Both the position numbers and the translations under genes were made by a program. From Phreatobacter stygius (GTDB lineage Bacteria > Pseudomonadota > Alphaproteobacteria > Rhizobiales > Phreatobacteraceae), in assembly GCF_005144885.1 (NCBI RefSeq), contig NZ_CP039690.1:806001-870000 (forward strand): a DNA stretch of 64,000 nt. The letters run 5' to 3'. Of this stretch, positions 33,674 to 50,944 are shown piece after piece (within the stretch, counting starts at the first letter, position 1; each line of letters starts with the position of its first letter). Below the pieces are notes generated by a model, which had not been told where the DNA came from, did no database searches, and worked only from the letters and a program-made list of their open reading frames with translations.

Positions 33674-33796
33674 CGAGCCGTTCGTCTGCGGGCCTGCCAA
33701 TGCCCCCTTGGAACAGCTATCGTCCCGGCGCAGGCGGCAAGGCCCGGGTTCGCTTGACGCCGCCCGCGCGGCGCGCTGCCTGGCATTGTTTTAGAT

Positions 33797-33817
33797 TTTT
33801 GGTATCGCAAAATGCAT
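33797..33817. promoter_or_regulatory. Putative GntR operator (autoregulatory copy)
   Basis: TTTTGGTA-TCG-CAAAATGCAT just before the GntR coding region. It matches 19 of 21 positions of the site at 50738-50758 and resembles the TTGGTATACCAA-type boxes of FCD-class GntR regulators. It overlaps an in-frame ATG at 33812, so the true start is probably further downstream. Confidence 0.6.
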
Positions 33818-33838
33818 TCCGATGGCAAAATGACGGCC

Positions 33839-34810
33839 ATGACGAAGACGACATCCTCGGTCAGTCCGTTGCAGCGGGACCTGGCACGCGGCATTCTCGA
33901 TCTGTTGCGCGGCCGCGGCGCGGCAGCCGGCGACCGGCTGAGCCGGGTGGCGCTCGCCGAGGCGCTGGGCGTCTCGCGCACGCCGGTCAATGGTGCGGTG
34001 GCGCTGCTCGAAGAGATGGGCATCGTCGCGATCGAAGGGCGCTCGGTGCGCATTGTCGATCTCGACCGCGATGCGTCGCGCCTGGCCTCGTCAGGCGACG
34101 AAACCAGCATCGCCCGCCTGCTGGTCGGCATTTCCAGGGCGCGTCGCGACGGCACCTTGCCCGACGAGGTATCCGAGCGGCATCTGGCCCAGCATTTCAG
34201 CGCCGGCCGCACCACGGTTGCCCATGCGCTCAGGCAATTGGCCGAGGCCGGCGTCGTGACGCGCAATCGCGGCCATGGCTGGAGCTTCACGCAAGGCTTC
34301 GCTTCGGCCGAGGATCGTGCCGCGTCCTATCGTTTCCGCATGTTGCTGGAACCGGCAGCCCTGCTCGAACCAACCTTCGCCTTGCCGCCCGGCTTCGAAG
34401 CCCGGATGCGCGCCGACCACGCCCGTTTCCTCGATCGCCCCTGGACCGCCGATGACGCGGTCGCTTTCTTCGAAACCAATGCGGCCTTCCATGCCGGCCT
34501 GGCCGAAGCCTCGGGCAACCGCTTCTTCGCACCGGTCATCGCCCAGCAGAACCGCCTGCGGCTTCTGTCGAACTATGCCTGGCAGCGCGGGGCCGAACGC
34601 GTCGAGGTGTCGGTGCGCGAGCATCTCGCCATTCTCGATGCGCTTGTCGCCGGCGACCGCCAAAAGGCAGCCGAACTGATGCGCCAGCACCTGGCGGGCG
34701 CCGCGGCACTCACGTTTCAGATGCCCGGCAGCGGCACGTCGGCGCCGGATGGATCGGACATTGATCACGCGCCGCCGGGACGGCGCGCGCCAAAACATCG
34801 CGCCAAATAG
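33839..34810 (+). CDS. GntR family regulator, FCD subclass, with two winged-helix segments
   Basis: About 323 residues from the ATG at 33839 (33830 and 33812 are alternatives). Residues 9-74 form a GntR winged helix (GDRLSRVALAEALGVSRTPV). A second winged-helix-like segment follows at about 88-155 (SERHLAQHFSAGRTTVAHAL, then LAEAGVVTRNRGHGW). Residues 165-295 are an all-helical FCD ligand domain with the usual histidines (AAFHAGLAEASGN, VREHLAILDAL, MRQHL). Having two DNA-binding segments is unusual. A near-copy of the site at its own promoter lies before the C45 hydrolase/ABC operon at 50.7 kb, the best target candidate. Confidence 0.88.
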   Translation: MTKTTSSVSPLQRDLARGILDLLRGRGAAAGDRLSRVALAEALGVSRTPVNGAVALLEEMGIVAIEGRSVRIVDLDRDASRLASSGDETSIARLLVGISRARRDGTLPDEVSERHLAQHFSAGRTTVAHALRQLAEAGVVTRNRGHGWSFTQGFASAEDRAASYRFRMLLEPAALLEPTFALPPGFEARMRADHARFLDRPWTADDAVAFFETNAAFHAGLAEASGNRFFAPVIAQQNRLRLLSNYAWQRGAERVEVSVREHLAILDALVAGDRQKAAELMRQHLAGAAALTFQMPGSGTSAPDGSDIDHAPPGRRAPKHRAK

Positions 34811-34836
34811 CCACGGCGCCACGCTGGCCGGACAGT

Positions 34837-36015
34837 TCAGGCTGGACGGACGCCTGCCCCGATGACGATCTGGACGAACCTGTCGACGGCATGATCAAAC
34901 GACAGTAGCCGGACCGCACGGCAACGCGCCGCCTCGCGGCGAGCGGCGGCCTGGTCGGACGGCTCGGCCAAGAGTGCGAGGACATGCGCGCCAAGGTTTC
35001 GCGCATCGCCCAGCTTCGCCAACATGCCAACGTCTCCGAGAATCGCTTCGGCCTCGCCGGCATCCGTGCTGACACATGCGACCCCGCATGACATGGCCTC
35101 GGCGAGCACATTGGGAAAAGCTTCGCTCCGCGAGGTCAGAAGTAGGAGATCAAGCCCGGGCATCAGCGCCTGAATATCTCGCCGCTCGCCCAGCACGGCG
35201 GTCCGCTCGCGAATGCCCGCAAGCAAAAGCCGTTGACAGAATTCGGCCCGATCCGTGCCTGCGCCAATGAACATGAAACGGGCGTCCGGACGCGCCTCGG
35301 CGATGTGACGGAAGACCTTTATGGCCGTGGCATGGTCCTTCAGCGGATCCACGCGTGCAACATGGCCGATGATCGGTCCTTGGCCGGCAAAATATGGTGC
35401 TCGCTCGCGAAACAGAGCGCTCAAGCGGCTCGCCGCAGCCGCATCCGGCTTGAAGTTGTGAACATCAACCCCGTTGGGGATGACCTGGGTCACCCGGGCA
35501 CGGTATCCCAGCCGGCCATGCGCCTCGGCGGCCCGGGCCGAATTGAAAGTCAGGACATCCGGCGGACCGGCCATGAACGGAAGCGCGCGGATCGCCAGCC
35601 TGCGGGTCAAGGATTGCGCCGCGCCGACCTGCAGCCCGTGCCGAATGTTCCAGGTGACCTGCGGACGCGAGACCGAAGCCACCTGGCGCGCTGCAAGGCT
35701 CGCAGCCAACGAGCCATGATACATCCAGCCGAAGACCATCCTCGGGCGGCATTCCTCAATGATATGGGCCAGCCGCGTGATGGCCGCCGGGGCCTCGGCG
35801 AGGCGGTCCAGGCCCAGGGCGATCACGTCAACGCCTGCCGCGCCGTAAGCCGCGTCGAGATCATCGACCGTCCTCAGCCGGACGACCGGTTGGCGTCCAA
35901 GCAGCGACGACGTGGCCTTGATGAGCCGCAACAGGAAATTCTCGGCACCTGCATTTGCAAGCCCGGTAATGACGTGCAAGACGGTGGGCGAGTATTCCGG
36001 CATAGGCGTCGGCAT
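34837..36015 (-). CDS. Glycosyltransferase family 4
   Basis: A 392-residue GT-B glycosyltransferase. The N-terminal domain opens with VLHVITGLANAGAENFLLRL, where a GGAE-type acceptor motif usually stands. The C-terminal domain has GHVARVDPLKDHATAIKVF and the sugar-nucleotide-binding ExxxxxE loop, LTSRSEAFPNVLAEAMSCG. The start at 36015 gives the family N-terminus; the longer frame overlaps the divergent dehydrogenase gene. It joins a sugar from a nucleotide donor to a growing surface glycan at the cytoplasmic membrane face. Donor sugar not predictable. Confidence 0.9.
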   Translation of the reverse strand: MPTPMPEYSPTVLHVITGLANAGAENFLLRLIKATSSLLGRQPVVRLRTVDDLDAAYGAAGVDVIALGLDRLAEAPAAITRLAHIIEECRPRMVFGWMYHGSLAASLAARQVASVSRPQVTWNIRHGLQVGAAQSLTRRLAIRALPFMAGPPDVLTFNSARAAEAHGRLGYRARVTQVIPNGVDVHNFKPDAAAASRLSALFRERAPYFAGQGPIIGHVARVDPLKDHATAIKVFRHIAEARPDARFMFIGAGTDRAEFCQRLLLAGIRERTAVLGERRDIQALMPGLDLLLLTSRSEAFPNVLAEAMSCGVACVSTDAGEAEAILGDVGMLAKLGDARNLGAHVLALLAEPSDQAAARREAARCRAVRLLSFDHAVDRFVQIVIGAGVRPA

Positions 36016-36091
36016 CTGCCACTCTCTTACGTAATCGGCCGATGCGCAGCAATGGGTTGACATGCACGACGGCAACGGAGATCGCTCGGTG

Positions 36092-37408
36092 TCCCTGGGG
36101 AATGCGAGTACTTTTTCAAGCTTGGACATGTCGCACGGTCGCCGCATCGCCGTCGTTGGCCTTGGATATGTCGGCTTGCCCGTGGCGGTCGCGTTCGGCC
36201 GGACGGGACAGCCCGTCGTCGGCTTTGAAATAGCCCCGTCGCGCGTCGCAGAACTCAAAGCCGGCTTCGATCGCACCCTCGAGACAAACGCGGACGACCT
36301 GGCGCAGGCCAAGATCATGTTCACGACTGATCCGTCGGCGCTCGACGCCGCGGATTTCTTCATTGTCACCGTGCCCACGCCGATCGACGACGCCAACCGC
36401 CCCGACATGCGACTGGTCCTGGCAGCATCCCGCGCGGTCGCCAAGGCTCTCAAGAAAGGCGACATCGTCGTCTACGAGTCGACCTTTTACCCAGGCGCCA
36501 CCGAAGAGGACTGCATTCCCCTGCTGGAACGCGAGTCGGGCCTCACCTGCGGCCTGGATTTTACCGTGGGCTACAGCCCCGAGCGGATCAATCCCGGTGA
36601 TCGCGAACGCCGCCTGGAGACGATCGCCAAAGTGGTCGCCGGTCAGGACGACGCCACGCTGGAGATTATCGCCGAGGTCTACGGCTCGATTGTCGCCGCC
36701 GGCGTCTACAGAGCGCCCTCTATCAAGGTCGCCGAAGCCGCCAAGGTCATCGAGAATACCCAACGCGACCTCAACATCGCCCTGATGAACGAGCTGGCGA
36801 TCATTTTCAGCTTGCTGGACGTGGATACGGCCGATGTTCTTGCGACGGCCGGAACGAAGTGGAACTTTCTCCATTTCACACCGGGATTGGTCGGCGGACA
36901 TTGCATTGGAGTTGATCCCTATTACCTGACCCATCGCGCTGAACGTGCCGGCTATCATCCGCAGGTCATCCTGGCGGGGCGTCGCATCAATGACCAGATG
37001 GGGGCCTGGATTGCGCGCGAATGCATCAAGCGGCTGCTCCGCAATGGCGGCGGACGATCCGTCACGGTGCTGGGCCTCGGTTACAAGGAGAACGTTCCGG
37101 ACATCCGGAATTCGAAGGTCATCGACGTCATCAGGGAGCTGAACAGCTTTGGCGTCGCGGTGCAGGTCGCCGATCCCTTGGCCGACCCGGCAGACTGCAT
37201 GCGCGAATATGATGTCGCCTTGACGCCCTATGCCGAGCTGGAACCGGCCGATGCTGTCATCCTCGCGGTTGCCCATGCCGACTATGTCAAGGCCGCCTGG
37301 GGCGGTATCGCCAAGCTGTTGAAGCCAGGCGCCAACCTTGTCCTGGACGTCAAGGCTGTCCTCGACCGCGCGACCAAGCCGCCGCATGTCGAACTGTGGC
37401 GGGCTTGA
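36092..37408 (+). CDS. Nucleotide sugar dehydrogenase (UDP-HexNAc/UDP-Glc 6-dehydrogenase, TviB/WbpO-like)
   Basis: About 438 residues. The Rossmann motif AVVGLGYVGLPVA, TVPTPIDDANRPDM, TVGYSPERINPGD and the active-site cysteine in GGHCIGVDPYYL place it with TviB/WbpO, which oxidise C6 of UDP-N-acetylhexosamines to uronic acids. Simple UDP-glucose dehydrogenase activity is not excluded, and the nearby UDP-glucuronate epimerase would suit it. GTG at 36092 has GGAG 8 nt before it; ATG at 36062 and 36128 are alternatives. It is divergent from a GT4 gene and stands inside the polysaccharide cluster. Confidence 0.9.
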   Translation, partial: SLGNASTFSSLDMSHGRRIAVVGLGYVGLPVAVAFGRTGQPVVGFEIAPSRVAELKAGFDRTLETNADDLAQAKIMFTTDPSALDAADFFIVTVPTPIDDANRPDMRLVLAASRAVAKALKKGDIVVYESTFYPGATEEDCIPLLERESGLTCGLDFTVGYSPERINPGDRERRLETIAKVVAGQDDATLEIIAEVYGSIVAAGVYRAPSIKVAEAAKVIENTQRDLNIALMNELAIIFSLLDVDTADVLATAGTKWNFLHFTPGLVGGHCIGVDPYYLTHRAERAGYHPQVILAGRRINDQMGAWIARECIKRLLRNGGGRSVTVLGLGYKENVPDIRNSKVIDVIRELNSFGVAVQVADPLADPADCMREYDVALTPYAELEPADAVILAVAHADYVKAAWGGIAKLLKPGANLVLDVKAVLDRATKPPHVELWRA

Positions 37409-37412
37409 CGGG

Positions 37413-38597
37413 CTAACCCGACAGCGCCTTCGACAAGGCCGCTTCCAGGCTGTCGCAAGCCGATGCCACCCCGTAGCTGGCCTGGGCGCGTTGACGCGCG
37501 GCACCGGCAAGGCGCCGGCCCAGCGAAGCGTCGCGGATCAGGACGGCAAGGGCCTCGGCGAGTGCGACTGGATCGGCCGGCGGCACCAGCAGACCAGCCT
37601 CTCCTTGTCCGAGCAATTCGTTGGCTCCCCCGACCCAGGTTGCCACGATCGGCAGGCCTGCCGCCGCCATCTCCAGAAGCGCATTGGAGAAGCTCTCCGT
37701 AAGCGAAGCGTGGATGCCGATATCGGCGGCTTCGAGGAGGCCGGACACATCGGCGCGCTCGCCGAGGAACTGCACATGAGCCGCGATGCCGGCATCCGAA
37801 GCCAGGCGTTCCAGGACGGCGCGTCGCCCGATGCCTTCAGCCGGCACCGCGCGGCCCTTGTCATCGACGTCGCGACCAACCACCAGGAGCCGCCAAGAGC
37901 CTGCCATCGCCCCCGTTCGATTGAGCAGGCCCAGGGCCGCGATGATGTCGGCATGGCCCTTATAGGCGAAGAGATTGGCGACCGTGACGAGCACCAGTTC
38001 GTCGCCTCCCAGCCCGAGAGCGGCGCGCGTCGCCTCCCGTGCCCGGAGATCCGGCGGCGGCTTCGGCACCACCGCGTTCACGACACGAACGATCCGCGCT
38101 GGCTCGACTCCCTCGGCCAACAGGTCGGTCCTGACCGGTTCGCTATTGGCCAGCACCAGCCGCGCGGTGCGCGTTCCCCAGCGGTCCAGCATGCCGAACA
38201 CGGCACCGCGCTCGTGCTGATAGGCGTTCTGGCTGCGACGGGCGACAATGTGAAGGGTCCCCGTCAGTCGCGCCGCCATAGCGCCGACGATGCAGGCATG
38301 GGGCAAGACGGTCAGCAGGATTTCGCTGCGCCGGGCGCGAACCACCGCGGCGGCGCGGCCAACCGCCCGCAGGTTTCGGATAACCGCAGCCACGGCCCCG
38401 CGCCCCATTCGCTCGCCGTCCGCGGCCGTTCTGACCGGGATCCCCGCAGCCTCCAGTGTCGCGCACAGGGCCTCGCGCGGGGCGATGGTTATGCAGGCGA
38501 CGTCATGACCGCGCGCCCGAAGCACCGGCAGAACCAAAGCCATCTGCGCCTCGGCCCCGCCTATCGCCAGACTGTCGATCAGGACGGCAATGCGCAC
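37413..38597 (-). CDS. Glycosyltransferase family 4
   Basis: A 394-residue GT-B enzyme. The N-terminus RIAVLIDSLAIGGAEAQMAL has the GGAE acceptor-domain motif; the donor domain carries VTVANLFAYKGHADIIAAL and HASLTESFSNALLEMAAAG. GTG at 38597 follows AGGAACC; the longer frame to 38666 lacks family support. Last gene of a minus-strand series epimerase - asnB - GT4 - methyltransferase - GT4, and convergent with the dehydrogenase gene (4-bp gap). Confidence 0.9.
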   Translation of the reverse strand: MRIAVLIDSLAIGGAEAQMALVLPVLRARGHDVACITIAPREALCATLEAAGIPVRTAADGERMGRGAVAAVIRNLRAVGRAAAVVRARRSEILLTVLPHACIVGAMAARLTGTLHIVARRSQNAYQHERGAVFGMLDRWGTRTARLVLANSEPVRTDLLAEGVEPARIVRVVNAVVPKPPPDLRAREATRAALGLGGDELVLVTVANLFAYKGHADIIAALGLLNRTGAMAGSWRLLVVGRDVDDKGRAVPAEGIGRRAVLERLASDAGIAAHVQFLGERADVSGLLEAADIGIHASLTESFSNALLEMAAAGLPIVATWVGGANELLGQGEAGLLVPPADPVALAEALAVLIRDASLGRRLAGAARQRAQASYGVASACDSLEAALSKALSG

Positions 38598-38688
38598 GCA
38601 GCGGTTCCTGTCGCCTGAAAAGCCCTGCCCGCCAGCTTGCCTCCGGACGGCGATCGCCGCCGGCATGAAGCGCGAGCGCCTGACCCGG

Positions 38689-39582
38689 TCATGCCACGTT
38701 GACGGCGGCCGGGGAGCCGGCCGGCCCGGTCAGTCTGGCAACCATATCCTTCACCTTCGTCTTCTTGCCGTTGACGCCAGTGCGCCTGAAAAGAAATTCC
38801 GAGCAGGCATGACCGGTCGCCACGTTGATCAGCTCGAAGCCGTACTCGCCTTCCAGGAGGTCGACCGTCTCCTGGTCGCCGGCATATTCCATTGGCCAGC
38901 CGCCGAGCCAGTCCCGAACATCCGTGAAATAATTCATCCCGCGCTGGGTCCGGTAGGTCCAGATCTGCTTGAGCACGGCCGGCAGGTTTCTGATGTTCAT
39001 CGACATGCCAAAGCGCCAGACATACCACCAGACCATCAGCCATTTGGTCAGCGACGTAACCCGGTTGTACTCTTGCTTTATTTCCAGCCAGAACGCTTGG
39101 CTCGGCTGGAAATCGACATCCTTCGAATAGAGGGCAATGTAGAAGAGTCCGCCTTCGGCCACACAGGACTGGGCGTTGCGGAGCGCCCGCCAAACCTCGC
39201 CGGTATGGTGCAGGACACCCCATGAATAGACCAGCTTCCAGGTGCCGAGCGAGGCAACGTAGCTGTCGTCCAGCACGTCTCCCTGCTCGACCGACCAATG
39301 GTCCGGCTTGCCCGCCCGGTCCCGGAGAAATCGTGTCGCCGCTACGGAATTGGCGTCATAGTCGAAACTATGCAGCTTTTCGGCACCAAGTTTCAGAGCG
39401 GCGAGCGAGTGCAGCCCTGAGCCGGATCCGATGTCGAGAAAGTCGAGGCCTTTCAGGTCATCGCGCTTGAGGAAGCCTGTCAGCCGCGCGGCGGCGGCAT
39501 CAAGACGCTGCTGGCTGTGCTTCTGGCGAACAAATCTGTTCCAGTTGTCTCCAAAGCCGAACCGCATGCCCGTGTCGGCCAT
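38689..39582 (-). CDS. Class I SAM-dependent methyltransferase
   Basis: A 297-residue methyltransferase. The SAM motif I is FLDIGSGSGLHSLAAL, the acidic residue after strand 2 is in LHSFDYDANSV, and VYSWGVLHHTGEVWRAL is the post-II block found in glycan-modifying methyltransferases. The C-terminal half is an aromatic-rich insert of about 100 residues (WLMVWWYVWRFGMSM) that may rest on the membrane. Its start is 2 bp from the upstream GT4 stop, so it is co-translated with it. It probably caps or decorates the glycan with O-methyl groups (inference). Confidence 0.85.
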   Translation of the reverse strand: MADTGMRFGFGDNWNRFVRQKHSQQRLDAAAARLTGFLKRDDLKGLDFLDIGSGSGLHSLAALKLGAEKLHSFDYDANSVAATRFLRDRAGKPDHWSVEQGDVLDDSYVASLGTWKLVYSWGVLHHTGEVWRALRNAQSCVAEGGLFYIALYSKDVDFQPSQAFWLEIKQEYNRVTSLTKWLMVWWYVWRFGMSMNIRNLPAVLKQIWTYRTQRGMNYFTDVRDWLGGWPMEYAGDQETVDLLEGEYGFELINVATGHACSEFLFRRTGVNGKKTKVKDMVARLTGPAGSPAAVNVA

Positions 39583-39584
39583 TA

Positions 39585-41351
39585 TCAGCCTTCCGCACTT
39601 GTCGTGATCTGCGCCGGCGAAGATTGCGGCGAGCGCGCGCCATAAACGGCGAGCGTGGCCGCGGCCATGCTCGCCACATCGAAGGTGCCGCGTGCGTGCA
39701 CCGCCCCATGCTCGCCCATTTGCCGCCGGCGCGGCGCGTCACCGGCCAGGTCCAGGACCGCGGCCGCCAGGGCCTTGGCGGTCTGACGCTGCGTGAGGAT
39801 CCCGGTCGTTCCGTCGACCAGCGTTTCCGGAGCGCCGCCGACCGGCGGCGTGACGACCGGAAGCCCCACGCTCTGCGCTTCGATCAGCACATTGGGCAGC
39901 CCCTCCAGGCGGGACGTGAGCATGAAAATGTCAAAGCCGCGCATGCTCTCCCAGGCGTCCCTGGTGACGCCCGGCAAACGCACGCGCTCGGCCAGGCCGG
40001 CCCTGGCGACGGTCGCGATCATCGCCTCGCGCATCGGGCCGTCGCCGTAACAGACCGCCACGATGCGCCGATCGGCGGCGACCGCCTCCATCGCGGCGGC
40101 GATCCAGAGATCCGGCCGCTTTTCCTCGGAGAACCGTTGAACGCCGCCGAGCACGACGGTCTCGTTGGAGACCCCCAGCCTCGCGCGCGCCGCCTGCCGC
40201 TGCTCGCCGGTCGGCACCGGCGGGAATTCGAAACCATTCCGGATCACTGCGATGCGCGACAGGTCGATCGCAAGCCAACGCGCGTAGTCTCGGGCCCCCG
40301 CGGTGCTGTTGTTGATGATGACGGCATTGCCCCGCTCGAGAATTCTCAGATATCCGGGCCGCATGTAGGGCTGGTAGAGCAGGAAATTATCCGGCGCGAC
40401 CGACCGGCCGCTCATGATCAGGCGCGGCACGCCGACGATTTGTGCCGCGACGCCGCCGGCGATGTTGGCGGCATCCATCCAGGTGTGAAACAGCTGCGGC
40501 CTCAGGTCGCGCAGCGCGAGCGCATGAGCGATCACCGTATGGGCCAGTTGCTGGAAGCCGATATGGCTGTAGCGCTGGGTGAAATAGTCCAGCTGCTCCT
40601 GAATGGCGGGATCTGCGTAGGCTGGACCATGAAACGCGATCTGGTGGACGCCGACATGGGCCGCCTCCAGGCTCGGTTTGAAAAAATCGTTCAGTGGCGG
40701 GGTCAGATTTTGGCACAACACGCTCACGCGCCAGTCGCCCTGGCGCGCCAGGGCCGCGCCGGTATAGGCGAGCTGACGCTCGGCGCCACCAGGCCCCAGC
40801 GTGCCGGAGGTCAAGGCCGCGTGGCCTGGCCGAAAGCTGTCTGGTGGCATGCGCAGGAACGACAGCCGCTCGTAAAGGTCCTCGAAGGCCCGCGTGAAGT
40901 TGACTGGCGACGATACGCCGGACAACAGGCCGGCCGTTGCGATCCTGCGTTGGATCGCCGGCCTGATGCGCTTGCCCAGGGCTTCGAGGGTGGACGTGCG
41001 CAGGAATGTTCCGTTTGGTCGTATCGCCCAGATGCTCTTGACGCCCCACGAGCGCAGTTTCCAAAGCACCGGCAAGGCGAGTTCATCAAGAAGCCCGAGG
41101 AACAACATTTCGTCTGGAAGGCGCCGCCTGATTTCCAGGCGTGAGTGGTTGATGTCCTTCCACCAGCCGGCAACCGTCGGACGATCCTCGTCGCCGACCG
41201 GTTGGCTGTCGACGATCACGGCGCTCAAGCGATCGAAGCGAAGCACTTCGGACACGAGCAGCGGCGGCAGGCTGAACGGTACGGCCAGGCCAAGGCGATG
41301 GGCGCCGGAGGCAGCCAGGCCCTGCTCGACGAGATGTTTGATGTTCAACAT
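39585..41351 (-). CDS. Glycosyltransferase family 4 with N-terminal extra domain
   Basis: About 588 residues. The GT-B part starts at about residue 178 (SGTLGPGGAERQLAYTGAAL) and has the donor-domain blocks GGVQRFSEEKRPDLWIAAA and TSRLEGLPNVLIEAQSVG. The first 175 residues (AVIVDSQPVGDEDRPTVAGW, then LGLLDELALPVLWKLRSWG) are not a known domain to me; they could be a degenerate second catalytic or acceptor-binding domain. The start at 41351 is the best-supported ATG, but the frame is open to 41585. Follows asnB after 104 bp and is nearly joined to the methyltransferase gene. Confidence 0.85.
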   Translation of the reverse strand: MLNIKHLVEQGLAASGAHRLGLAVPFSLPPLLVSEVLRFDRLSAVIVDSQPVGDEDRPTVAGWWKDINHSRLEIRRRLPDEMLFLGLLDELALPVLWKLRSWGVKSIWAIRPNGTFLRTSTLEALGKRIRPAIQRRIATAGLLSGVSSPVNFTRAFEDLYERLSFLRMPPDSFRPGHAALTSGTLGPGGAERQLAYTGAALARQGDWRVSVLCQNLTPPLNDFFKPSLEAAHVGVHQIAFHGPAYADPAIQEQLDYFTQRYSHIGFQQLAHTVIAHALALRDLRPQLFHTWMDAANIAGGVAAQIVGVPRLIMSGRSVAPDNFLLYQPYMRPGYLRILERGNAVIINNSTAGARDYARWLAIDLSRIAVIRNGFEFPPVPTGEQRQAARARLGVSNETVVLGGVQRFSEEKRPDLWIAAAMEAVAADRRIVAVCYGDGPMREAMIATVARAGLAERVRLPGVTRDAWESMRGFDIFMLTSRLEGLPNVLIEAQSVGLPVVTPPVGGAPETLVDGTTGILTQRQTAKALAAAVLDLAGDAPRRRQMGEHGAVHARGTFDVASMAAATLAVYGARSPQSSPAQITTSAEG

Positions 41352-41455
41352 TCGGACGCCTGCCCCTTCAACACCATCGTCATGCGCCGACCGCCCGGGC
41401 GACCACCCGGCTGGAAGCAAGATACACGTGAGCTGGAGGATCCCATCAGGGCCTT

Positions 41456-43423: not shown

Positions 43424-43472
43424 GAAATCGTTCGCCTCGCGCTGGCGGGAGCTTGTCCGCCGAGACCGGTGA

Positions 43473-44498
43473 TCAGGCCACTTGGTGGTAGGAACGATAC
43501 CAGTCGACGAACCGGGCGACCCCGACCTCGAGCGGCGTCGCCGGCTGAAACCCCGTTTGCCGGGTCAAGTCGTCGACATCGGCGCAGGTTGCCGGCACAT
43601 CTCCCATCTGCATCGGCTTCATGATCGTCTTGGCCTTGCGGCCCAGCCTCTGCTCGAGCAATTCGACCACCCGCATGAGAGGCTCGGCCTTGTTGTTTCC
43701 AATATTGTAGAGCCGATAGGGCGCCTTGCTGGTGCCCGGCGTCGGAACATCGGAACGCCATTGTGGATCAGGCGTGGCGACGACATCGCAGGACCTGACG
43801 ACACCTTCGACGATATCATCGACATAGGTGAAGTCGCGCAGCATCTCGCCGTGATTGAAGAGCTCGATTTCTCGCCCGTCGAGAATGGCCTTGGTGAAGA
43901 TATACATCATCATGTCGGGCCGCCCCCAGGGCCCGTAGACCGTGAAGAACCGCAAGCCGGTCGTTGGCAGGCCGAACAGGTGGCTATAGCTGTGCGCCAT
44001 CAGTTCATTGGCCCGCTTCGAGGCCGCATAGAGCGTCAGCGGATGATCGGCGTTCTGGCGCACCGAAAACGGCATGTTGGTATTGGCGCCGTAGACCGAA
44101 CTGGTCGAGGCATAGACAAGGTGTTCAACGCCGTGATGGCGGCAGCATTCCAGAATATTGGCGAAACCGACCAGGTTGGCCTGGACGTAAGCATGCGGGT
44201 TGACCAGCGAATAGCGCACGCCCGCCTGGGCGGCCAGATGAATGACGCGCCGCGGCCTGGACTGGGTGAACACGGCGTTCAGCGCCGCGCCATCGGCAAT
44301 GTCGATACGATGAAACTGGTGACCCTGGCGTTCGCCGAGCCGCGCCAGCCGCGCTTCTTTCAGGTTCGGGTCGTAATAATCATTGACGTTGTCGACACCA
44401 ATGACCTCAAGGCCGCGGTCGAGCAATTTGACCGCCGTATGAAACCCGATGAACCCCGCCGTTCCGGTCACCAGGATTGGTCCAGCATCACTGGTCAT
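43473..44498 (-). CDS. UDP-glucuronate 4-epimerase (NAD-dependent epimerase/dehydratase)
   Basis: A 341-residue extended SDR. NAD binding is by VTGTAGFIGFHTA, with DNVNDYYDPNLKEARL and the catalytic YAASK. HLAAQAGVRYSL, STSSVYG and GPWGRPDMMMYIF are the marks of UDP-GlcA 4-epimerases (LspL/CapI type), which make UDP-galacturonate. First gene of the minus-strand polysaccharide series. Its product, a UDP-hexuronate, is a fitting donor for the nearby glycosyltransferases and a substrate for AsnB-type amidation. Confidence 0.93.
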   Translation of the reverse strand: MTSDAGPILVTGTAGFIGFHTAVKLLDRGLEVIGVDNVNDYYDPNLKEARLARLGERQGHQFHRIDIADGAALNAVFTQSRPRRVIHLAAQAGVRYSLVNPHAYVQANLVGFANILECCRHHGVEHLVYASTSSVYGANTNMPFSVRQNADHPLTLYAASKRANELMAHSYSHLFGLPTTGLRFFTVYGPWGRPDMMMYIFTKAILDGREIELFNHGEMLRDFTYVDDIVEGVVRSCDVVATPDPQWRSDVPTPGTSKAPYRLYNIGNNKAEPLMRVVELLEQRLGRKAKTIMKPMQMGDVPATCADVDDLTRQTGFQPATPLEVGVARFVDWYRSYHQVA

Positions 44499-44600
44499 GT
44501 CGATCTCGCTCCGTGGAGATGTACGCGCGAGGCGCTGAATCGCTTCGCGCCGGCAAGACCGCCCACCACGTGATCATCGTCCCACATACGGCCCCGGATG

Positions 44601-46220
44601 TCAGGCCCGCGCCGCCTCCGCCAGCACCACCTCGGTATCGATGCGCGGCGTCGCGTCGAGCAACGCCCGGGTATAGGGGTGGCGCGGATTGTCGAACACC
44701 TCGTCGCGCGAGCCCTGCTCGACGATCCGGCCCGCCTGCATCACCACCACCCGGTCGGCGACCTCGGCGACCGCGCCGAGATCGTGCGAGATGAACAGGC
44801 AGGCAAAGCCGCGCTCCTCCTGCAGCCGGCGGATCAGGTCGAGGATCTGCTTCTGCACGGTCATGTCGAGCGCGCTCACCGGCTCGTCGGCGACCACGAG
44901 GGCCGGCCGCCGGACGATGGCGCGGGCAATGGCGACGCGCTGGCGCTGGCCGCCGGAGAGCTGGTGCGGGAAACGGTCGGCCATGCCCGGCAAGCCGACG
45001 GCCTCGAAGGTTTCGGTGACACGCGCGGCCTTCGCCGGGGCATCGAGGCCGGGTTCGTGGCGCAGCGGCTCGGCCACGATGTCGCCAATGCGCATGCGCG
45101 GATCGAGCGACGAATAGGGATCCTGGAACACGATCTGGCAGGCCAGCCGGAAGTCCTTGAGCGGGGCGCCGCGGGCGGCGGTGACATCGCCGCCGCGGAA
45201 CATCAACTGGCCGCCGCTGGCGGTGATCAGCCTCAGCATGGCCCGGCCGAGCGTGGTCTTGCCGCAGCCGCTGCCGCCGACCAGCGCCACCGTCTCGCCA
45301 TGGGAAATCGTCAGGTCGACGCCGTCGACCGCGCGCTTGGCAAGCCCGTGCCGGAACAGGCCCCGGCTGCCGGGATAGTCGACCGTCAGGCCGCGCGCCT
45401 CCAGCAGCGGCTCGGGCGCGATCGCGCGCACCGGCCGCGGCGTCCGGCGCGGCATGGCCGCGACCAGGTCGCGGGTATAGGGGTGCTGAGGCTTGCGCAG
45501 GAGGTCGCCGGCCCTGCCCTCCTCGACCACCCGGCCGCGCTGCATCACCAGCGCGCGGTCAGCATAACGCGCCACCAGGCCGAGATTGTGGGTGACCAGC
45601 AGGATGGCGGTGCCGCGATCCTGGGCGAGCTCGACCATCAGGTTGAGGATCTCGGCCTGGACCAGATTGTCGAGGGCGGTGGTCGGCTCGTCGGCGATCA
45701 GGAGCTTTGGCGCCGGCAGCATGACCGCGGCCAGCATGATCCTTTGCCGCATGCCGCCGGAAAACTCGTGCGGATAGGCCTTGAGGCAACCTTCCGGGTC
45801 GGGGATCTGGATCCGCCTGAGCATGGCGAGGCAGGCCCGGCGCTGCTCGTCCGGGCTCATCGGGCTGTGCAGGGCGAGCGCCTCGCCGAGCTGGGCGCCA
45901 ATGCTGAGCGCCGGGTTCAACGAGACCATCGGCTCCTGGAACACCATGCCGATCGAACCGCCGCGCAATTCGCGCAGGCGCGCCGGCGTTACCGTGGTCA
46001 GGTCTTCGCCTAGGATGGCGATGCTGCCGGCGGTGCGTTTCAGTCCGGGCGGCAGCAGGCCGAGAATGGCGCGGCCGGTGGCGGTCTTGCCGCTGCCGGA
46101 CTCGCCGACCAGCGCCAGGATCTCGCCCGGCTGAATGTCGAAGGAGACCTTGTCGACGGCAACGAACGGACCGGCGCCGACGCTGAGGCCCCGGACCGAA
46201 AGCAAGGCTCCGGCGCTCAT
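44601..46220 (-). CDS. Dipeptide/oligopeptide-type ABC transporter, fused ATP-binding protein (DppD-DppF like)
   Basis: A 539-residue protein with two ABC ATPase domains. Walker A motifs are GESGSGKTATG and GGSGCGKTTLG; signature motifs are FSGGMRQRI and LSGGQRQRV; both Walker B segments (LLIADEPTTALD, LVVADEPVSALD) are complete, so both sites should hydrolyse ATP. It powers the permease pair encoded upstream. ATG at 46220 overlaps the permease stop (ATGA), so translation is coupled. Last gene of the five-gene operon starting at 50708. Confidence 0.95.
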   Translation of the reverse strand: MSAGALLSVRGLSVGAGPFVAVDKVSFDIQPGEILALVGESGSGKTATGRAILGLLPPGLKRTAGSIAILGEDLTTVTPARLRELRGGSIGMVFQEPMVSLNPALSIGAQLGEALALHSPMSPDEQRRACLAMLRRIQIPDPEGCLKAYPHEFSGGMRQRIMLAAVMLPAPKLLIADEPTTALDNLVQAEILNLMVELAQDRGTAILLVTHNLGLVARYADRALVMQRGRVVEEGRAGDLLRKPQHPYTRDLVAAMPRRTPRPVRAIAPEPLLEARGLTVDYPGSRGLFRHGLAKRAVDGVDLTISHGETVALVGGSGCGKTTLGRAMLRLITASGGQLMFRGGDVTAARGAPLKDFRLACQIVFQDPYSSLDPRMRIGDIVAEPLRHEPGLDAPAKAARVTETFEAVGLPGMADRFPHQLSGGQRQRVAIARAIVRRPALVVADEPVSALDMTVQKQILDLIRRLQEERGFACLFISHDLGAVAEVADRVVVMQAGRIVEQGSRDEVFDNPRHPYTRALLDATPRIDTEVVLAEAARA

Positions 46221-47041
46221 CGCTGCTCTCCGCGCGGGTCGAGGCGGTCGCGCAGCGCGTCGCCCATCAGGTTGATGCCGAGCAGCGTCACGGCGATGCA
46301 GAAACCGGGACAGAGGCTGAGCCAGGTGGCCGATTCCATATAGGGCCGGGCCGCCGACAGCATGTTGCCCCAGGTCGGCGCCGGCGGCGGCACGCCGAGG
46401 CCGAGAAAGCTCAACGCGCTCTCGGCCAGGATGGCCCAGCCGAACATGCCGGTGGCCAGCACGATGACCGGCGAGGCGGTGCTCGGCAGGACATGCCGCC
46501 ACAGGGTGTAGAACTCGGAATTGCCGATCGCCCGCGACGCCTCGATGAATTCCCGCTCACGGATCGACATGACCGAGCCACGCACGATGCGCGCCACCGT
46601 CGGGGCATAGGCAAGGCCGAGGGCTGCGACGATCCCCCATTTGCTGGCGCCGATGACCGCCATCAGGCCGAGCGCCAGCAGGATGCCGGGGAAGGCCAGC
46701 AGCGTATCGTTGATCAGCATCAAGGCCCGGTCGGTCCAGCCGCGGGCAAAACCGGCGATCAGGCCAATGACGCTGCCGAGCAGGACCGCGACCAGCACGG
46801 TCAAGGCGGCGACCAGGCAGGAGGTGCCGGCGCCCGCCATCAGCCGGCTCAGGACGTCGCGGCCGACCTCGTCGGTGCCGAGCCAGTGCAGCGCCGAGGG
46901 CGCCGCGAGCCGGGCGCGCAGATTGACGCCGAGCGGATTGTAGGGCGTCCAGACCGCCGACAGGCCGGCCATCAGCAGGACGACTGCGAGCAGCAGCCCG
47001 CCAAGGATCGCGTTGAGCCTGAGCCGCATCATGGCCTTCAC
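46217..47041 (-). CDS. ABC transporter permease (DppC/OppC type)
   Basis: A 274-residue inner-membrane subunit with about six helices. It has the N-terminal DppC pattern (TPYNPLGVNLRARLAAPSAL, HWLGTDEVGRDVLSRL) and the EAA loop EFIEASRAIGNSEFYTLWRH that contacts the ATPase. GTG start at 47041 overlaps the upstream stop by four bases; an ATG three codons in is an alternative. It works with the next permease as the channel of the importer. Confidence 0.94.
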   Translation of the reverse strand: MKAMMRLRLNAILGGLLLAVVLLMAGLSAVWTPYNPLGVNLRARLAAPSALHWLGTDEVGRDVLSRLMAGAGTSCLVAALTVLVAVLLGSVIGLIAGFARGWTDRALMLINDTLLAFPGILLALGLMAVIGASKWGIVAALGLAYAPTVARIVRGSVMSIREREFIEASRAIGNSEFYTLWRHVLPSTASPVIVLATGMFGWAILAESALSFLGLGVPPPAPTWGNMLSAARPYMESATWLSLCPGFCIAVTLLGINLMGDALRDRLDPRGEQR

Positions 47042-47985
47042 TCCGCCGCCACGCGTGGATCGAACAGGGGGTAGAGCAGGTCGACGAGCAGGTTCACCAG
47101 CACGTAGATGCAGGCAATGAACAGGATCGCCCCCTGCACCACCGGATAGTCGCGGGCGTAGATGCCGTCGACCAGCAGGCGACCGAGGCCCGGCAAGGTG
47201 AACACCGTCTCGATCACCGCGATGCCGCCGAGCAGATTGCCCAGCACGATGCCCATCAGTGTCAGTGTCGGCGCGAAAGCATTGGGCAGGACATGTTTGC
47301 CCAGCACGGTCGATTCACGCAGGCCCTTGGAGCGGGCATGGGCGACATATTCCAGCCGCAGCACGTCGATCGTGGCGCTGCGCGCCATGCGGGTCAGCAC
47401 ACCGGCCTCGATCAGGGTCAAGGTCGCGATCGGCAGCGCGATATAGCGCAGCGCCTGCCAGGCATCCTCGCCGAACGGGACATAACCGACGACCGGCACC
47501 CAGCCGAGCTTCAGCCCGAAGAACAGCAGCATCAGCAAGCCCAGCCAGAAGCTCGGGATCGACAGCAGCAGGGTCGCTCCCGCGACCACGGCGAGATCCA
47601 GCCCCTTGTCCTGCTTCCAGGCCGCGATCATGCCGAGCGGCACCGCCAGCAGTCCGGCCAGCGCCACCGCCGCCAGCACGATCGGCGCGGTGACCTGGAA
47701 ACGGTCGAGGATCAAGGGCAGCACCGGCTCGCCGTTGGAGATCGAACGGCCGAGATCGCCGCTGAGGCCATGGCCGAGCCAGGTCAGGAACTGCATCGGC
47801 AAGGGCTGGTTGAGGCCCATGCTGTCCCTGAGCGCGGCAAGCTGCTGGGCATCGGCCGCGTCGCCCAGCATCAGCTGCGCGGGGTCGCCCGGCACCAGCC
47901 GCATCAAGGTGAACACCGCGACCGAGACCAGCAGCAAGGTGGGCAGCGCCAGCAGCAGCCGCTTCAGCGCATAGGCGAATGTCAT
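47038..47985 (-). CDS. ABC transporter permease (DppB/OppB type)
   Basis: A 315-residue permease. The family start (AYALKRLLLALPTLLLVSVA, then LVPGDPAQLMLG) and the EAA-type loop YVAHARSKGLRESTVLGKHV are present, with about six helices. It pairs with the DppC-type subunit. Second of the transport genes, directly after the substrate-binding protein gene (24-bp gap). Confidence 0.94.
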   Translation of the reverse strand: MTFAYALKRLLLALPTLLLVSVAVFTLMRLVPGDPAQLMLGDAADAQQLAALRDSMGLNQPLPMQFLTWLGHGLSGDLGRSISNGEPVLPLILDRFQVTAPIVLAAVALAGLLAVPLGMIAAWKQDKGLDLAVVAGATLLLSIPSFWLGLLMLLFFGLKLGWVPVVGYVPFGEDAWQALRYIALPIATLTLIEAGVLTRMARSATIDVLRLEYVAHARSKGLRESTVLGKHVLPNAFAPTLTLMGIVLGNLLGGIAVIETVFTLPGLGRLLVDGIYARDYPVVQGAILFIACIYVLVNLLVDLLYPLFDPRVAAE

Positions 47986-48009
47986 GTCGGCGACCTCCCC
48001 GTCCCTGGT

Positions 48010-49596
48010 TCAGCGTCTGGATACGCCCCAAAGCCTGGTCTGCGCGGCGGCCCAGGAGGCAACGCCGTCGAGACCCTTGCGATGGGCGAGATAGTCCGGC
48101 TGGTTGAACAGGATGATGGCCGGGGTCTGGGCGATGAAGCGCTGAAAGAGATCGTCGAAGATCGCCTGGCGTTCGGCCGGGTCGGCCACCTCGAAGGAGC
48201 GGCGGATGAGCGCCAGCGCCTCGGGGTCCTCCCAGAGCTTGCGCGGCTGGCTGTCCTTCGGGCCCGACAACATCTCGTAGGACAGCGACGGATCGAGCCG
48301 GGGCGAATAGAGGAAGGACATCATCTGATAGTCGCCGCGGGTGTAGCGGTCGAGCTGGGTCGCCCAATCCAGCACCTCGAGTTCGATCTTGAGGCCAGCC
48401 TCGGCCGCCATCGACTGGGCGGCGACCGCCGCGTCATAGACATTCGGATAGCGCCGGTTGGTGATCATCCGGATCGTCTGGCCGCGATAGCCGGCTTCGG
48501 CCAGGAGCCGCTTCGCCGCGGCGATGTCATGGCGCGGCCGCACGCCCTGCACCGCCGTATGGAACGCGCTGGAACTCGGAATCGGCGATGGATTGTCCGG
48601 CGCGTCGGTGCCGACCAGGCTCGCCACGATCTGCGGCACGTCGATCGCCAACGCCATCGCCCGGCGAATGCGCGGATCCCTGAGCAGCGGGTCGCGGGTC
48701 TGGATCAGGAAGCCGGTCAGCCCCATGGTCGGCGCCGAGACGACGGTGATGTCATTGCGCCCGCGCATGTCGCTGAGCTCGGTCGAGGCGACATCCGACA
48801 TGAGGTCGATGGCGCCGGCGATCAGAGCGGCCTTCGCGGCCGAGGAATCCGGGATGACCATGAAGCGGATCTGCGCGGCCGAGGCGATCTTGGCGCCGGC
48901 CAGGCCGTCGCGCGGGCCGGCCAGCGGCACATAGCCGTCGAAGCGCAGGAGATCGACATATTGGCCACGGCGCCATTCGCCGAGCCGGTAGGGGCCGGTG
49001 CCGACCGGCTGACGCCAGACGCCGTCCGCCCCGACCGAGGCCGGATGAACGATGGCCGTGGAGCCGCAGTCGGGCCGCGCCATGGTGTTGAGGAACAAGG
49101 CCGTCGGCTTTTCCAGGGTGATCGTCACGGTGGCCGCGTCAGGCGCCCCGATATCCACCACCTTGGCAATGCCGTGGCCGTCGAAATCCGGCAGGCAGCG
49201 CCATTGCACGGCCGGATCGAGATAGCGCTTGAGGCTCCAGACCACCTCGGCCGAGGTCAGCGGCGCGCCGTTGTGGAAGGTCACGCCTTGGCGGAGCGTG
49301 AAGCGATAGGTGCGGCCATCGGCGGAAAGGTCGATGCGCTCGGCGAGCATGGGCGCGATCGCGGCGTTCTCGCGCAGCGCGACCAGCCCCTCGACCATGT
49401 GCAGCACCACGCTGTCGGTGTTGAAATCGCGGTTGACCCCGGGCTGGGTGCTGCGGATATCCGAATTCAGCGCCACCCGGAAACCATAGTCGCCGCGCTG
49501 TGGCGCCGGGCCGGCAGCAGACCCCGGTTGCGCCGATGCCGGGCCGGCAAAGGCCGTCAGCCAGGCGACGATGCCAAGAGCGATCGCTTGCCTCAT
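48010..49596 (-). CDS. ABC transporter substrate-binding protein, family 5 (peptide/nickel/acyl-compound)
   Basis: A 528-residue periplasmic binding protein with a signal peptide (MRQAIALGIVAWLTAFAGPASA). The SBP_bac_5 signatures VVLHMVEGLVALRENAAIAP and TFHNGAPLTSAEVVWSLKRY are present. No lipobox cysteine, so it is soluble in the periplasm. Its ATG overlaps the stop of the C45 hydrolase gene by four bases, so ligand capture and intracellular cleavage are made together. The ligand is probably an N-acylated or peptide-like compound (inference from the hydrolase). Confidence 0.94.
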   Translation of the reverse strand: MRQAIALGIVAWLTAFAGPASAQPGSAAGPAPQRGDYGFRVALNSDIRSTQPGVNRDFNTDSVVLHMVEGLVALRENAAIAPMLAERIDLSADGRTYRFTLRQGVTFHNGAPLTSAEVVWSLKRYLDPAVQWRCLPDFDGHGIAKVVDIGAPDAATVTITLEKPTALFLNTMARPDCGSTAIVHPASVGADGVWRQPVGTGPYRLGEWRRGQYVDLLRFDGYVPLAGPRDGLAGAKIASAAQIRFMVIPDSSAAKAALIAGAIDLMSDVASTELSDMRGRNDITVVSAPTMGLTGFLIQTRDPLLRDPRIRRAMALAIDVPQIVASLVGTDAPDNPSPIPSSSAFHTAVQGVRPRHDIAAAKRLLAEAGYRGQTIRMITNRRYPNVYDAAVAAQSMAAEAGLKIELEVLDWATQLDRYTRGDYQMMSFLYSPRLDPSLSYEMLSGPKDSQPRKLWEDPEALALIRRSFEVADPAERQAIFDDLFQRFIAQTPAIILFNQPDYLAHRKGLDGVASWAAAQTRLWGVSRR

Positions 49597-50708
49597 GCCG
49601 CCCTCGTCGCAGCGCCTGGCGTGAGTTCATAACGAGTGAAGACCCGGTTCAGCGCCGGCAAGGGCGCGACATCGAGCACCCCCCTGGCCGGCTGCATCAG
49701 CAGCATGGCAACCGTCGCCGAGAGATTGCCCCCGGAATTCACCCGCGGCGGGCGGCAGACCGACCAGGGCGACTGGTAGTCGTCGAACAGCGCATCACGC
49801 ACCGCCTCGACATCCAGCGCGCCGCGGCGCTTTTCGAGGAGCGCGCGCACCCTCAGGTCGCGGTACAGGCTATCGGGCGTGTTGGCGATGCCGGTATCCC
49901 TGAGCTTGGCCAGCGCCACCGGGCTTTGCCAGTGGTTGGCGTGGACGATCAGGCCATCGGTCGGCAGCACCTGGAAACTCTCGTCCGGAGCGCATTCGAA
50001 GTCGATGGCGATGCCGCCGGCGTGGCTGACGATGATGTTGTTCGAAGCCGATTTCCGCGTGGTGTAGGCGGCGTGGAAGGCCTGCGCGACATGCTCCTGT
50101 TCCAGCACCTTGCGCCGGATCAGCGCCAGGGGCACGCCGAGTTCGCGGTAGTCGCGGTCGCTTTCCAGGTAGTTGGCGGTGACCGCGATGCCGGCAGCAT
50201 TCAGGCCGGCGCGGGCGAGGCCCCCGGCCTCGACGAAGGTCAGGATGTCAGGAGCGTCGTCGCGGCGGATGCGCAGCACCACGCCGGTCTCGGCGCATTC
50301 GGATTTCCAGTCCCAGTTCTGGGCATGGATGAGTTCGCCGCTGCGTGACGCCGACGGCAGCACCACCACGCCGGTGCAGCCATCGTGATCTTCGGCGGCG
50401 AGCCGGGCGCGTTTGCCGAGCTGCAGCACCTCGGTGCGGGCATTGATCAGCACGATGTCTTCGAATTCGACATTGGCGCCGGCCGCGATGCCGCGCATCT
50501 CCGCGACATAAGCCGGATCGAAGGCTTCGATCCGCGGAACGAAGTCGCGGGCCCAGCCACGGATCGTCGCCGCACCATGGCCGCCGGCGGTCAATTGCGC
50601 CGAATAATGCTCGATGCTCCGCCGGATGCGCTGGCTTGCCTGCTGGCCGTAGTGGCGGCCGCGGGTTTGCGCGTCGCCGCGAAGCTCGATCAGGGGAAAG
50701 GGTTCCAT
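49593..50708 (-). CDS. C45 family autoproteolytic acyltransferase/hydrolase (penicillin acylase-like)
   Basis: A 371-residue Ntn-hydrolase of the acyl-CoA:6-aminopenicillanate acyltransferase family. The nucleophile is the cysteine in DHDGCTGVVV; the precursor normally cuts itself before this cysteine. The block HAQNWDWKSECAETGVVLRI is the family's NWD motif, and AGGLARAGLNAAGIAVTANYL is also typical. No signal peptide, so it acts in the cytoplasm on an amide such as an N-acyl amino acid or beta-lactam side chain. First gene of the operon with a peptide-type importer, and preceded by a GntR-type site. Confidence 0.92.
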   Translation of the reverse strand: MEPFPLIELRGDAQTRGRHYGQQASQRIRRSIEHYSAQLTAGGHGAATIRGWARDFVPRIEAFDPAYVAEMRGIAAGANVEFEDIVLINARTEVLQLGKRARLAAEDHDGCTGVVVLPSASRSGELIHAQNWDWKSECAETGVVLRIRRDDAPDILTFVEAGGLARAGLNAAGIAVTANYLESDRDYRELGVPLALIRRKVLEQEHVAQAFHAAYTTRKSASNNIIVSHAGGIAIDFECAPDESFQVLPTDGLIVHANHWQSPVALAKLRDTGIANTPDSLYRDLRVRALLEKRRGALDVEAVRDALFDDYQSPWSVCRPPRVNSGGNLSATVAMLLMQPARGVLDVAPLPALNRVFTRYELTPGAATRAA

Positions 50709-50737
50709 GCCGCGCGTCCCAAAATGCCTCGTTCGGA

Positions 50738-50758
50738 TTTTGGTACCCCAAAATGCAT
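50738..50758. promoter_or_regulatory. Putative GntR operator before the C45/ABC operon
   Basis: TTTTGGTA-CCC-CAAAATGCAT, 30 to 50 bp before the C45 gene start. TTTTGG/CCAAAA form a dyad. A half-copy, CCCAAAATGC, lies nearer the start at 50719-50728. Nearly identical to the site at the GntR gene (33797-33817). Confidence 0.65.
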
Positions 50759-50944
50759 CTCTTGAGCAAGGGGCAGTTCACGTTGCGGCCGGCATCTTTT
50801 CGACAAGTGGCGGCGGACCCGGCGCGGTGCGACGGGACGTGACCGCTCAAATCCACCCACGGCTTCGCAGCCGGCAGACGCAGAGCGCGGAAAAAGCGGC
50901 AGAAATCCGCGGCGGCGCGCCAGCACAGCCGTTGCGGGATCGCG

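What the first reader, a model, noticed from the sequence alone, without database searches (positions are those of the whole stretch)
33797..50758. Shared 21-bp site links a GntR regulator to a C45 hydrolase/ABC importer operon 17 kb away
TTTTGGTA-N3-CAAAATGCAT occurs at the start of the GntR/FCD gene (33797-33817) and 30-50 bp before the C45 acylase-importer operon (50738-50758); 19 of 21 positions match. A half-site repeats at 50719-50728. FCD-type GntR regulators bind TTGGTATACCAA-like boxes, so the sites fit this protein. It suggests a regulon split by an unrelated polysaccharide cluster, and a ligand that is also the importer's substrate. The regulator carries two winged-helix segments, which may read the extended site with its extra ATGCAT.
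Basis: partly seen in the sequence, partly recalled or inferred. Interest (0 to 1): 0.72.

Follow-up and report, generated by a model that had tools for sequence, protein, structure and literature searches.

The report
Split regulon of double-headed GntR regulator
A GntR-type regulator with two DNA-binding heads and a hydrolase/importer operon 17 kb away share one inverted-repeat DNA site; in Roseomonas-type bacteria the same genes form one operon with a matching site, so they are best read as one regulon that was pulled apart.

Summary
The two sites are real: they are the only matches with up to 3 mismatches in the 7.35-Mb genome. In congener G003 only the same two promoters carry the site. 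A palindrome taken from the window alone finds the C45 promoter as the single best place in 8 of 8 gntR1-clade loci of other bacteria, 17-21 kb each. In 7 of those 8, gntR1 directly follows the operon's ATPase gene. So a once-contiguous module is now split, with an operator before each piece. The 9.7-kb glycosyltransferase block between them is absent from G003.

The operator is ATTTTGG-N4-CCAAAAT (ACTTTGG-N4-CCAAAGT in Roseomonas). The ATGCAT tail and a GT...AC core are not conserved.

The regulator belongs to an FCD family with two winged helices; I found no solved structure or paper on it in the searches made. Congeners G001 and G008 have the homologous operon near a paralogue, gntR2, and lack the site. 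Regulator type and operator type change together, with two residues of the first winged helix. DNA binding, repression and an omega-amino-acid-type ligand are inferred.

The parts
33796..33813 (+).
   Evidence: in G003 the same place has ATTTTGG-TATC-TCAAAAT
33839..34810 (+). gntR1: FCD-type GntR regulator with two winged helices (residues 10-72 and 88-150) and a six-helix FCD domain (157-293)
   Evidence: Pfam FCD and GntR above cut-off, two GntR stretches; AlphaFold2 model, mean pLDDT 80.7
34837..44498 (-). Inserted block: glycosyltransferases, methyltransferase, asparagine-synthase-like protein, epimerase. Not part of the regulon; it separates its halves
   Evidence: query 34850-44560 has only short matches (56-671 bp, 68-80%) in G003
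44601..46220 (-). Fused ABC-importer ATPase, last gene of the target operon
46217..47041 (-). Importer permease (permC)
47038..47985 (-). Importer permease (permB)
48010..49596 (-). SBP_bac_5 solute-binding protein
49593..50708 (-). C45-family autoproteolytic acyltransferase/hydrolase, first gene of the target operon; conserved C111
   Evidence: NF040521, 281 bits against a cut-off of 85; alignment of 6
50719..50728 (+). Extra half-site CCAAAATGCC between operator 2 and the C45 start
   Evidence: kept in G003; not seen in the Roseomonas promoters
50737..50754 (+).
   Evidence: in G003 ATTTTGG-TATC-TCAAAAT

Best explanation
The two sites are operators of the window's own double-winged-helix FCD regulator, gntR1. 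The palindrome ATTTTGG-N4-CCAAAAT lies at the promoter of gntR1 and at the promoter of the C45-hydrolase/ABC-importer operon. Most likely gntR1 is a repressor released by a compound from the imported substrate, so regulator and operon are induced together. The older arrangement was one operon under one operator, C45-SBP-permB-permC-ATPase-gntR1, as in Roseomonas-group bacteria. In the window's lineage the regulator part was separated and inverted and has its own operator copy; in this strain a 9.7-kb glycosyltransferase block now lies in the gap. Shown by computation: the sites, their conservation, gene orders, and absence of the block from G003. Inferred: that gntR1 binds the sites, repression, induction by ligand, and the order of evolutionary steps.
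For: Only 2 genome-wide matches, both in the expected promoters. G003 (gntR1 89%, C45 91%) has only the same two; DNA similarity to G003 starts at 33790 before gntR1 and ends at 50784 beyond C45, so both conserved blocks include the operator. The window-derived palindrome's single best place is the C45 promoter in 8 of 8 gntR1-core loci of other bacteria. gntR1 follows the ATPase on the same strand in 7 of those 8 and is convergent with it in 1, L094. With a motif fitted to the group, 9 of 9 gntR1-core loci (L088, which is G003, included) have 0-2 mismatches, against 0 of 45 loci with other double-wHTH regulators and 5 of 3,888 random stretches. A double-wHTH FCD gene occurs in 62 of 80 C45 loci.
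Against: No binding data. In L094, the closest relative by tree, the match at C45 is weak (4 of 14 mismatches, though best in its locus) and no full palindrome lies before gntR1. The fitted motif is missing at C45 in 3 of 3 gntR1b and 6 of 6 gntR1c loci, so the operator drifts within the wider clade. 18 of 80 C45 loci (7 of 61 with wide flanks) have no such regulator in reach. No sigma-70 box was found at three promoters, so repression is not shown by geometry. The G003 join between contigs C14 and C75 is not assembled.
Confidence: 0.85

Rival explanations
1. gntR1 binds both sites but activates the operon (activator with ligand) instead of repressing it.
For: FCD activators exist: CitO with citrate binds upstream of the cit promoters and induces them (PMC4746285, start of abstract in the listing). 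No promoter box was found that would fix the geometry.
Against: The operators lie 22-50 bp before the start codons, and in the Roseomonas alignment a TTGAGC...CAGGAT pair, read by eye, lies just upstream of the operator, which suits a repressor. Weak argument.
Confidence: 0.2
2. Both sites belong to another regulator, for example the paralogue gntR2 at G000:C1:1521160 or another FCD protein.
For: The genome has at least one paralogue with 43-46% identity, and in congeners gntR2 lies within 2 kb of the C45 orthologue.
Against: The site is absent from G001, G008 and G009, which have gntR2 or its like; the gntR2 promoters of G000, G003, G001 and G008 carry a different element; the palindrome follows the gntR1 core clade across genera.
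Confidence: 0.07
3. The two copies are direct repeats (attachment or target-site duplications) flanking a 17-kb mobile element, without regulatory meaning.
For: They are in the same orientation and flank a block that includes strain-specific genes.
Against: G003 lacks the strain-specific block but keeps both copies; the sites are palindromic, differ at 2 of 21 positions, and a matching palindrome lies at the C45 promoter in 8 of 8 related loci. No tRNA in the window and no integrase or transposase among the 7 ORFs of the block that were scanned with Pfam. The insertion lies inside the repeats (34.8-44.6 kb), not at them.
Confidence: 0.02

Closest known systems
FCD (FadR/VanR-type) GntR regulators with one winged helix, e.g. 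VanR Atu1419 (6z74, 6za7), Lmo0651 (6ep3), TM0439 (3sxy)
   Same: FCD ligand domain and GntR winged helix by sequence and by fold; palindromic operator near the promoter
   Different: gntR1 has two winged helices in front of the FCD domain. The longest chain is 265 aa among the 21 sequence hits and 278 aa among the 50 fold hits listed, each aligned to one winged helix and/or the FCD part; I saw no double-headed one
FadR-subfamily operator consensus NyGTM-N0-1-KACNy (PMC4494728, section 5)
   Same: Palindrome with A/T-rich arms; weaker extra half-sites near the palindrome are known in the family (section 17)
   Different: Here the conserved part is TTTGG-N4-CCAAA and the bases inside GG...CC vary, so GT...AC is not conserved. 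The extra half-site is about 22 nt from the centre, not 7-12
C45/ABC-importer clusters with gntR2 in Bradyrhizobium, Microvirga and Acidovorax, described here only
   Same: Homologous C45 hydrolase, importer and double-wHTH FCD regulator, often with AptA
   Different: There the regulator is usually divergent from and next to C45 (46 of 63 regulator-locus pairs; 3 of these 46 are gntR1b) with another operator; in the window it is 9.8 kb beyond the operon end with its own operator copy

Membership tests
GntR superfamily, FCD group | GntR-type winged helix plus FCD domain above curated cut-offs | tested here: met
   PF00392 63.5 bits (cut-off 27), PF07729 69.6 bits (cut-off 24.3)
GntR superfamily, FCD group | One winged helix in front of the ligand domain | tested here: not met
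   Two winged helices in the model and two GntR stretches; hence a variant, not a standard member
GntR superfamily, FCD group | Operator with conserved GT...AC core (NyGTM-N0-1-KACNy) | tested here: not met
   Positions inside GG...CC vary among the 8 related loci; consensus from PMC4494728 section 5
GntR superfamily, FCD group | Binding of the regulator to the predicted operator, released by a ligand | not testable with these tools
   Needs EMSA or footprinting
NCBIfam equivalogs among GntR regulators (PhnR_burk, NanR and others) | Score at or above the model's cut-off | tested here: not met
   Best is TIGR03338 at 70.5 bits (cut-off 271.5); none of the 21 models listed reaches its cut-off
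C45 autoproteolytic acyltransferase/hydrolase | NF040521 above cut-off and conserved Cys at the putative cleavage site | tested here: met
   281 bits, cut-off 85; C111-T112 invariant in 6 of 6. That C111 is the nucleophile is recalled family knowledge

The most novel reading that the evidence does not exclude
Double-winged-helix FCD proteins are an unstudied class of GntR regulators with four heads per dimer that control import and hydrolysis of amide-linked omega-amino compounds. Within the class a paired change in the first winged helix (E36/R51 to R36/N51) retargeted one branch to TTGG-N4-CCAA palindromes, so that two paralogues run orthogonal halves of one catabolic pathway in the same cell: gntR1 the C45 hydrolase and importer, gntR2 AptA, an amidase and a second binding protein.
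Probability: 0.35. Interest if true: 0.66.

Novelty: new variant of a known kind. Interest (0 to 1): 0.5.

Why it matters
It predicts an operator and a two-promoter regulon for an FCD architecture with two winged helices that the searches made here did not find described, although a profile of it matches 40 of 297 genomes searched in the order. gntR1 and gntR2 beside homologous C45 operons are natural regulator-operator pairs, so the DNA code of this architecture can be tested directly. The case also shows a regulator separated from its operon yet linked to it by a second operator copy. The neighbourhood (C45 hydrolase, importer, AptA-type aminotransferase) points to a catabolic route that can be tested with defined substrates.

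Tried and rejected
Direct repeats of a mobile element: rejected, see rivals. A wider gntR1 regulon: the relaxed palindrome (up to 3 mismatches of 14) gave 41 places in G000 and 43 in G003, against 26 and 24 for the reversed control. With 2 or fewer mismatches there are 3 places in G000 (the two sites and 2251448) and 6 in G003 (the two sites and 4 others), so no further member is claimed. The 21-bp pattern over 61 genomes hit 28, but the reversed control hit 27, so outside G000 and G003 its 2-3-mismatch hits are at chance level. ATGCAT as part of the operator: not conserved. Sigma-70 boxes at three promoters: none. PDA1 and the third binding protein of G003 surviving elsewhere in G000: best matches only 34% and 42%, the latter the operon's own SBP. 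Literature on a double-wHTH GntR/FCD protein: four searches, listings only, none described it as far as titles and abstract starts show; C45/GntR/omega-aminotransferase: 0 papers; the library holds open-licence PMC papers only. The gntR2 element was read by eye, not modelled. Of my two fold jobs one was used; the tree is of regulators only, no C45 tree was made.

Full report
CHECK OF THE OBSERVATION. TTTTGGTA-N3-CAAAATGCAT is at 33797-33817 and 50738-50758, both on the + strand; 18 of 18 fixed positions match in both copies and 19 of 21 positions agree. None of 100 shuffles of the window gave a match with up to 3 mismatches. The genome (7,354,671 bases, 1 contig, unnamed handle G000) has only these 2, and the reversed control has 0. 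The element is best read as an inverted repeat: ATTTTGG-TACC-CCAAAAT at 50737-50754 is perfect and TTTTTGG-TATC-GCAAAAT at 33796-33813 departs at 2 of 14 positions. The half-site at 50719-50728 is present. The regulator most likely starts at ATG 33839.

THE GENES. gntR1 (33839-34810, +) has FCD and GntR domains above the cut-offs, with two GntR stretches. The AlphaFold2 model (13-row alignment, mean pLDDT 80.7, pTM 0.62) shows two winged helices, 10-72 and 88-150, and a six-helix FCD domain, 157-293. The target operon (50708 down to 44601, -) codes for a C45-family hydrolase, an SBP_bac_5 protein, two permeases and a fused ATPase.

FOOTPRINT IN THE CONGENER. Of 61 genomes searched (own and 60 relatives), G003 (same genus, 8.4 Mb) has a gntR1 orthologue (89%) and a C45 orthologue (91%). 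Its contig C75 has the length of JAFKKV010000010.1, a Hyphomicrobiales MAG contig. G003 has only two sites with up to 3 mismatches, both with 1, and they lie before exactly these genes: C14:89371-89391 and C75:6427-6447. Over all 61 genomes the pattern hit 28 and the reversed control 27, so hits elsewhere are at chance level. DNA similarity between window and G003 begins at 33790 on the gntR1 side and ends at 50784 on the C45 side, so each conserved block includes its operator. The FGE-sulfatase-like gene divergent from gntR1 (32861-33700) had no window-to-G003 DNA match over its length.

INDEPENDENT TEST IN OTHER BACTERIA. The palindrome of the window alone, ATTTTGG-N4-CCAAAAT, was scored along the 8 loci (L089-L096) whose regulator falls in the gntR1 core clade outside the window's genus. 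In 8 of 8 the single best place in 17-21 kb is 42-61 bp before the C45 match start: 2 mismatches in 5, 3 in 2 and 4 in 1. The Roseomonas form is ACTTTGG-N4-CCAAAGT. In 7 of the 8 gntR1 follows the ATPase on the same strand; in L089 and L093 two deacetylase-like genes (PDA1, PDA2) and another SBP follow. In L094 (Acetobacteraceae bacterium H6797) gntR1 is convergent with the operon, as in the window. With the motif AYTTTGG-N4-CCAAART, fitted to this group and so partly circular, 9 of 9 core loci (L088, which is G003, included) have 0-2 mismatches within 250 bp of C45, against 0 of 45 loci with other double-wHTH regulators (44 gntR2-clade loci and L145), 0 of 3 gntR1b, 0 of 6 gntR1c, 0 of 17 without a regulator, and 5 of 3,888 random stretches. 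Against the reading: L094 has no full palindrome before its own gntR1, and gntR1b and gntR1c lack the fitted motif at C45.

REGULATOR AND OPERATOR CHANGE TOGETHER. In G001 and G008 (same genus) the C45 orthologue (62% and 61%), with permease and ATPase genes beside it, lies within 2 kb of another double-wHTH regulator, gntR2, which is 73-74% identical to the paralogue at G000:C1:1521160 and 44-45% to gntR1. G009 has the same pair of genes (C45 61%, regulator 42% to gntR1), but I did not compare its regulator with gntR2 one to one. None of the three has the gntR1 site. In G000, G003, G001 and G008 the gntR2 promoters carry TGTATTTTGTCAA-N2-CATGA-N-ACA (by eye), and gntR2-C45 spacers of Bradyrhizobium and Microvirga carry other long elements (by eye). 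The tree of 81 regulators holds the gntR1 core (10 rows) together at 100/98 and puts H6797 next to the window's genus at 100/91. In the first winged helix, position 36 is R in 10 of 10 core rows and E in 49 of 49 gntR2 rows; position 51 is N in 9 of 10 (H in L095) and R in 49 of 49; gntR1b has R36 and A51 in 3 of 3. By my alignment, with FadR recalled, these match FadR Glu34 and Arg49, which Table 1 of PMC4494728 lists as electrostatically linked (section 5). R47 and R124, one in each head, are invariant in 13 of 13 rows, so both heads may bind DNA; that is inference.

HOW THE REGULON CAME APART. The window is largely co-linear with G003 from 20.1 kb to the end of gntR1 (34.7 kb, contig C14) and from the ATPase end to 62.3 kb (44.6-62.3 kb, contig C75). 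The block between (34.85-44.56 kb queried) has only short matches in G003, 56-671 bp at 68-80%. G003 instead has PDA1, PDA2 and an SBP after gntR1, the order of L089 and L093, and then its contig ends; Pfam was run on its PDA1 and SBP only. Orthologues of that PDA1 and SBP were not found in G000 (best 34% and 42%). Simplest history: one operon with one operator; separation and inversion of the regulator part, with a second operator; replacement of the PDA/SBP part by the glycosyltransferase block in this strain. The G003 join is unassembled, so the order of steps is inferred.

LIKELY FUNCTION. Of 80 loci, 62 hold a double-wHTH FCD gene, 54 an AptA-like aminotransferase (50% identity or more), 53 both, and 10 an aldehyde dehydrogenase (50% or more). 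Of 61 loci with at least 6 kb before and 7.5 kb after the C45 start, 54 hold the regulator. Three AptA proteins (L113, L115 and the gntR2 locus of G000) were scored and pass the NF052567 cut-off. In G000 AptA is next to gntR2, on the same strand, with an amidase and a second SBP nearby. This suggests import of an amide-linked compound, its hydrolysis by the C45 enzyme, and transamination of an omega-amino product; the ligand would be one of these. This is inference.

VERDICT. A conserved two-operator regulon of a double-headed FCD regulator that has been displaced from its operon. Binding, sign of regulation and ligand are untested. Papers: PMC4494728 was seen as abstract and sections 5 and 17; all other papers only as listings with abstract starts. 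Scores: interest 0.5, novelty a new variant of a known kind.

Noticed in passing
G000:C1:1519694-1526054 (L064:7694-14055): Paralogue gntR2 with AptA omega-aminotransferase on its strand, a divergent amidase and a second SBP without own permeases in the genes read; it may share the importer of the window's operon.
   Followed up: partly
window 32861-33700: FGE-sulfatase-like gene divergent from gntR1, so operator 1 might also touch its promoter; no DNA match over it in G003.
   Followed up: partly
window 28300-29790: Aldehyde dehydrogenase upstream of gntR1, 95.7% identical in G003; a possible pathway enzyme, not linked by any site.
   Followed up: no
L103:7366-9002, L089, L093, L062:10939-12578: A pair of polysaccharide-deacetylase-family genes (PDA1, PDA2) next to double-wHTH regulators in several genera; in 15 (PDA1) and 14 (PDA2) of 80 loci. 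Perhaps amide or imide hydrolases.
   Followed up: no
L100, L102, L109, L110 near 14.5 kb: gntR1c promoters carry ...GAAATACCAAAAYGG or a near form, reminiscent of one half of the window operator.
   Followed up: no
L097, L098: Clusters with gntR2, AptA, amidase and two SBPs beside one C45/importer set: possibly the undivided form of the two G000 loci.
   Followed up: no
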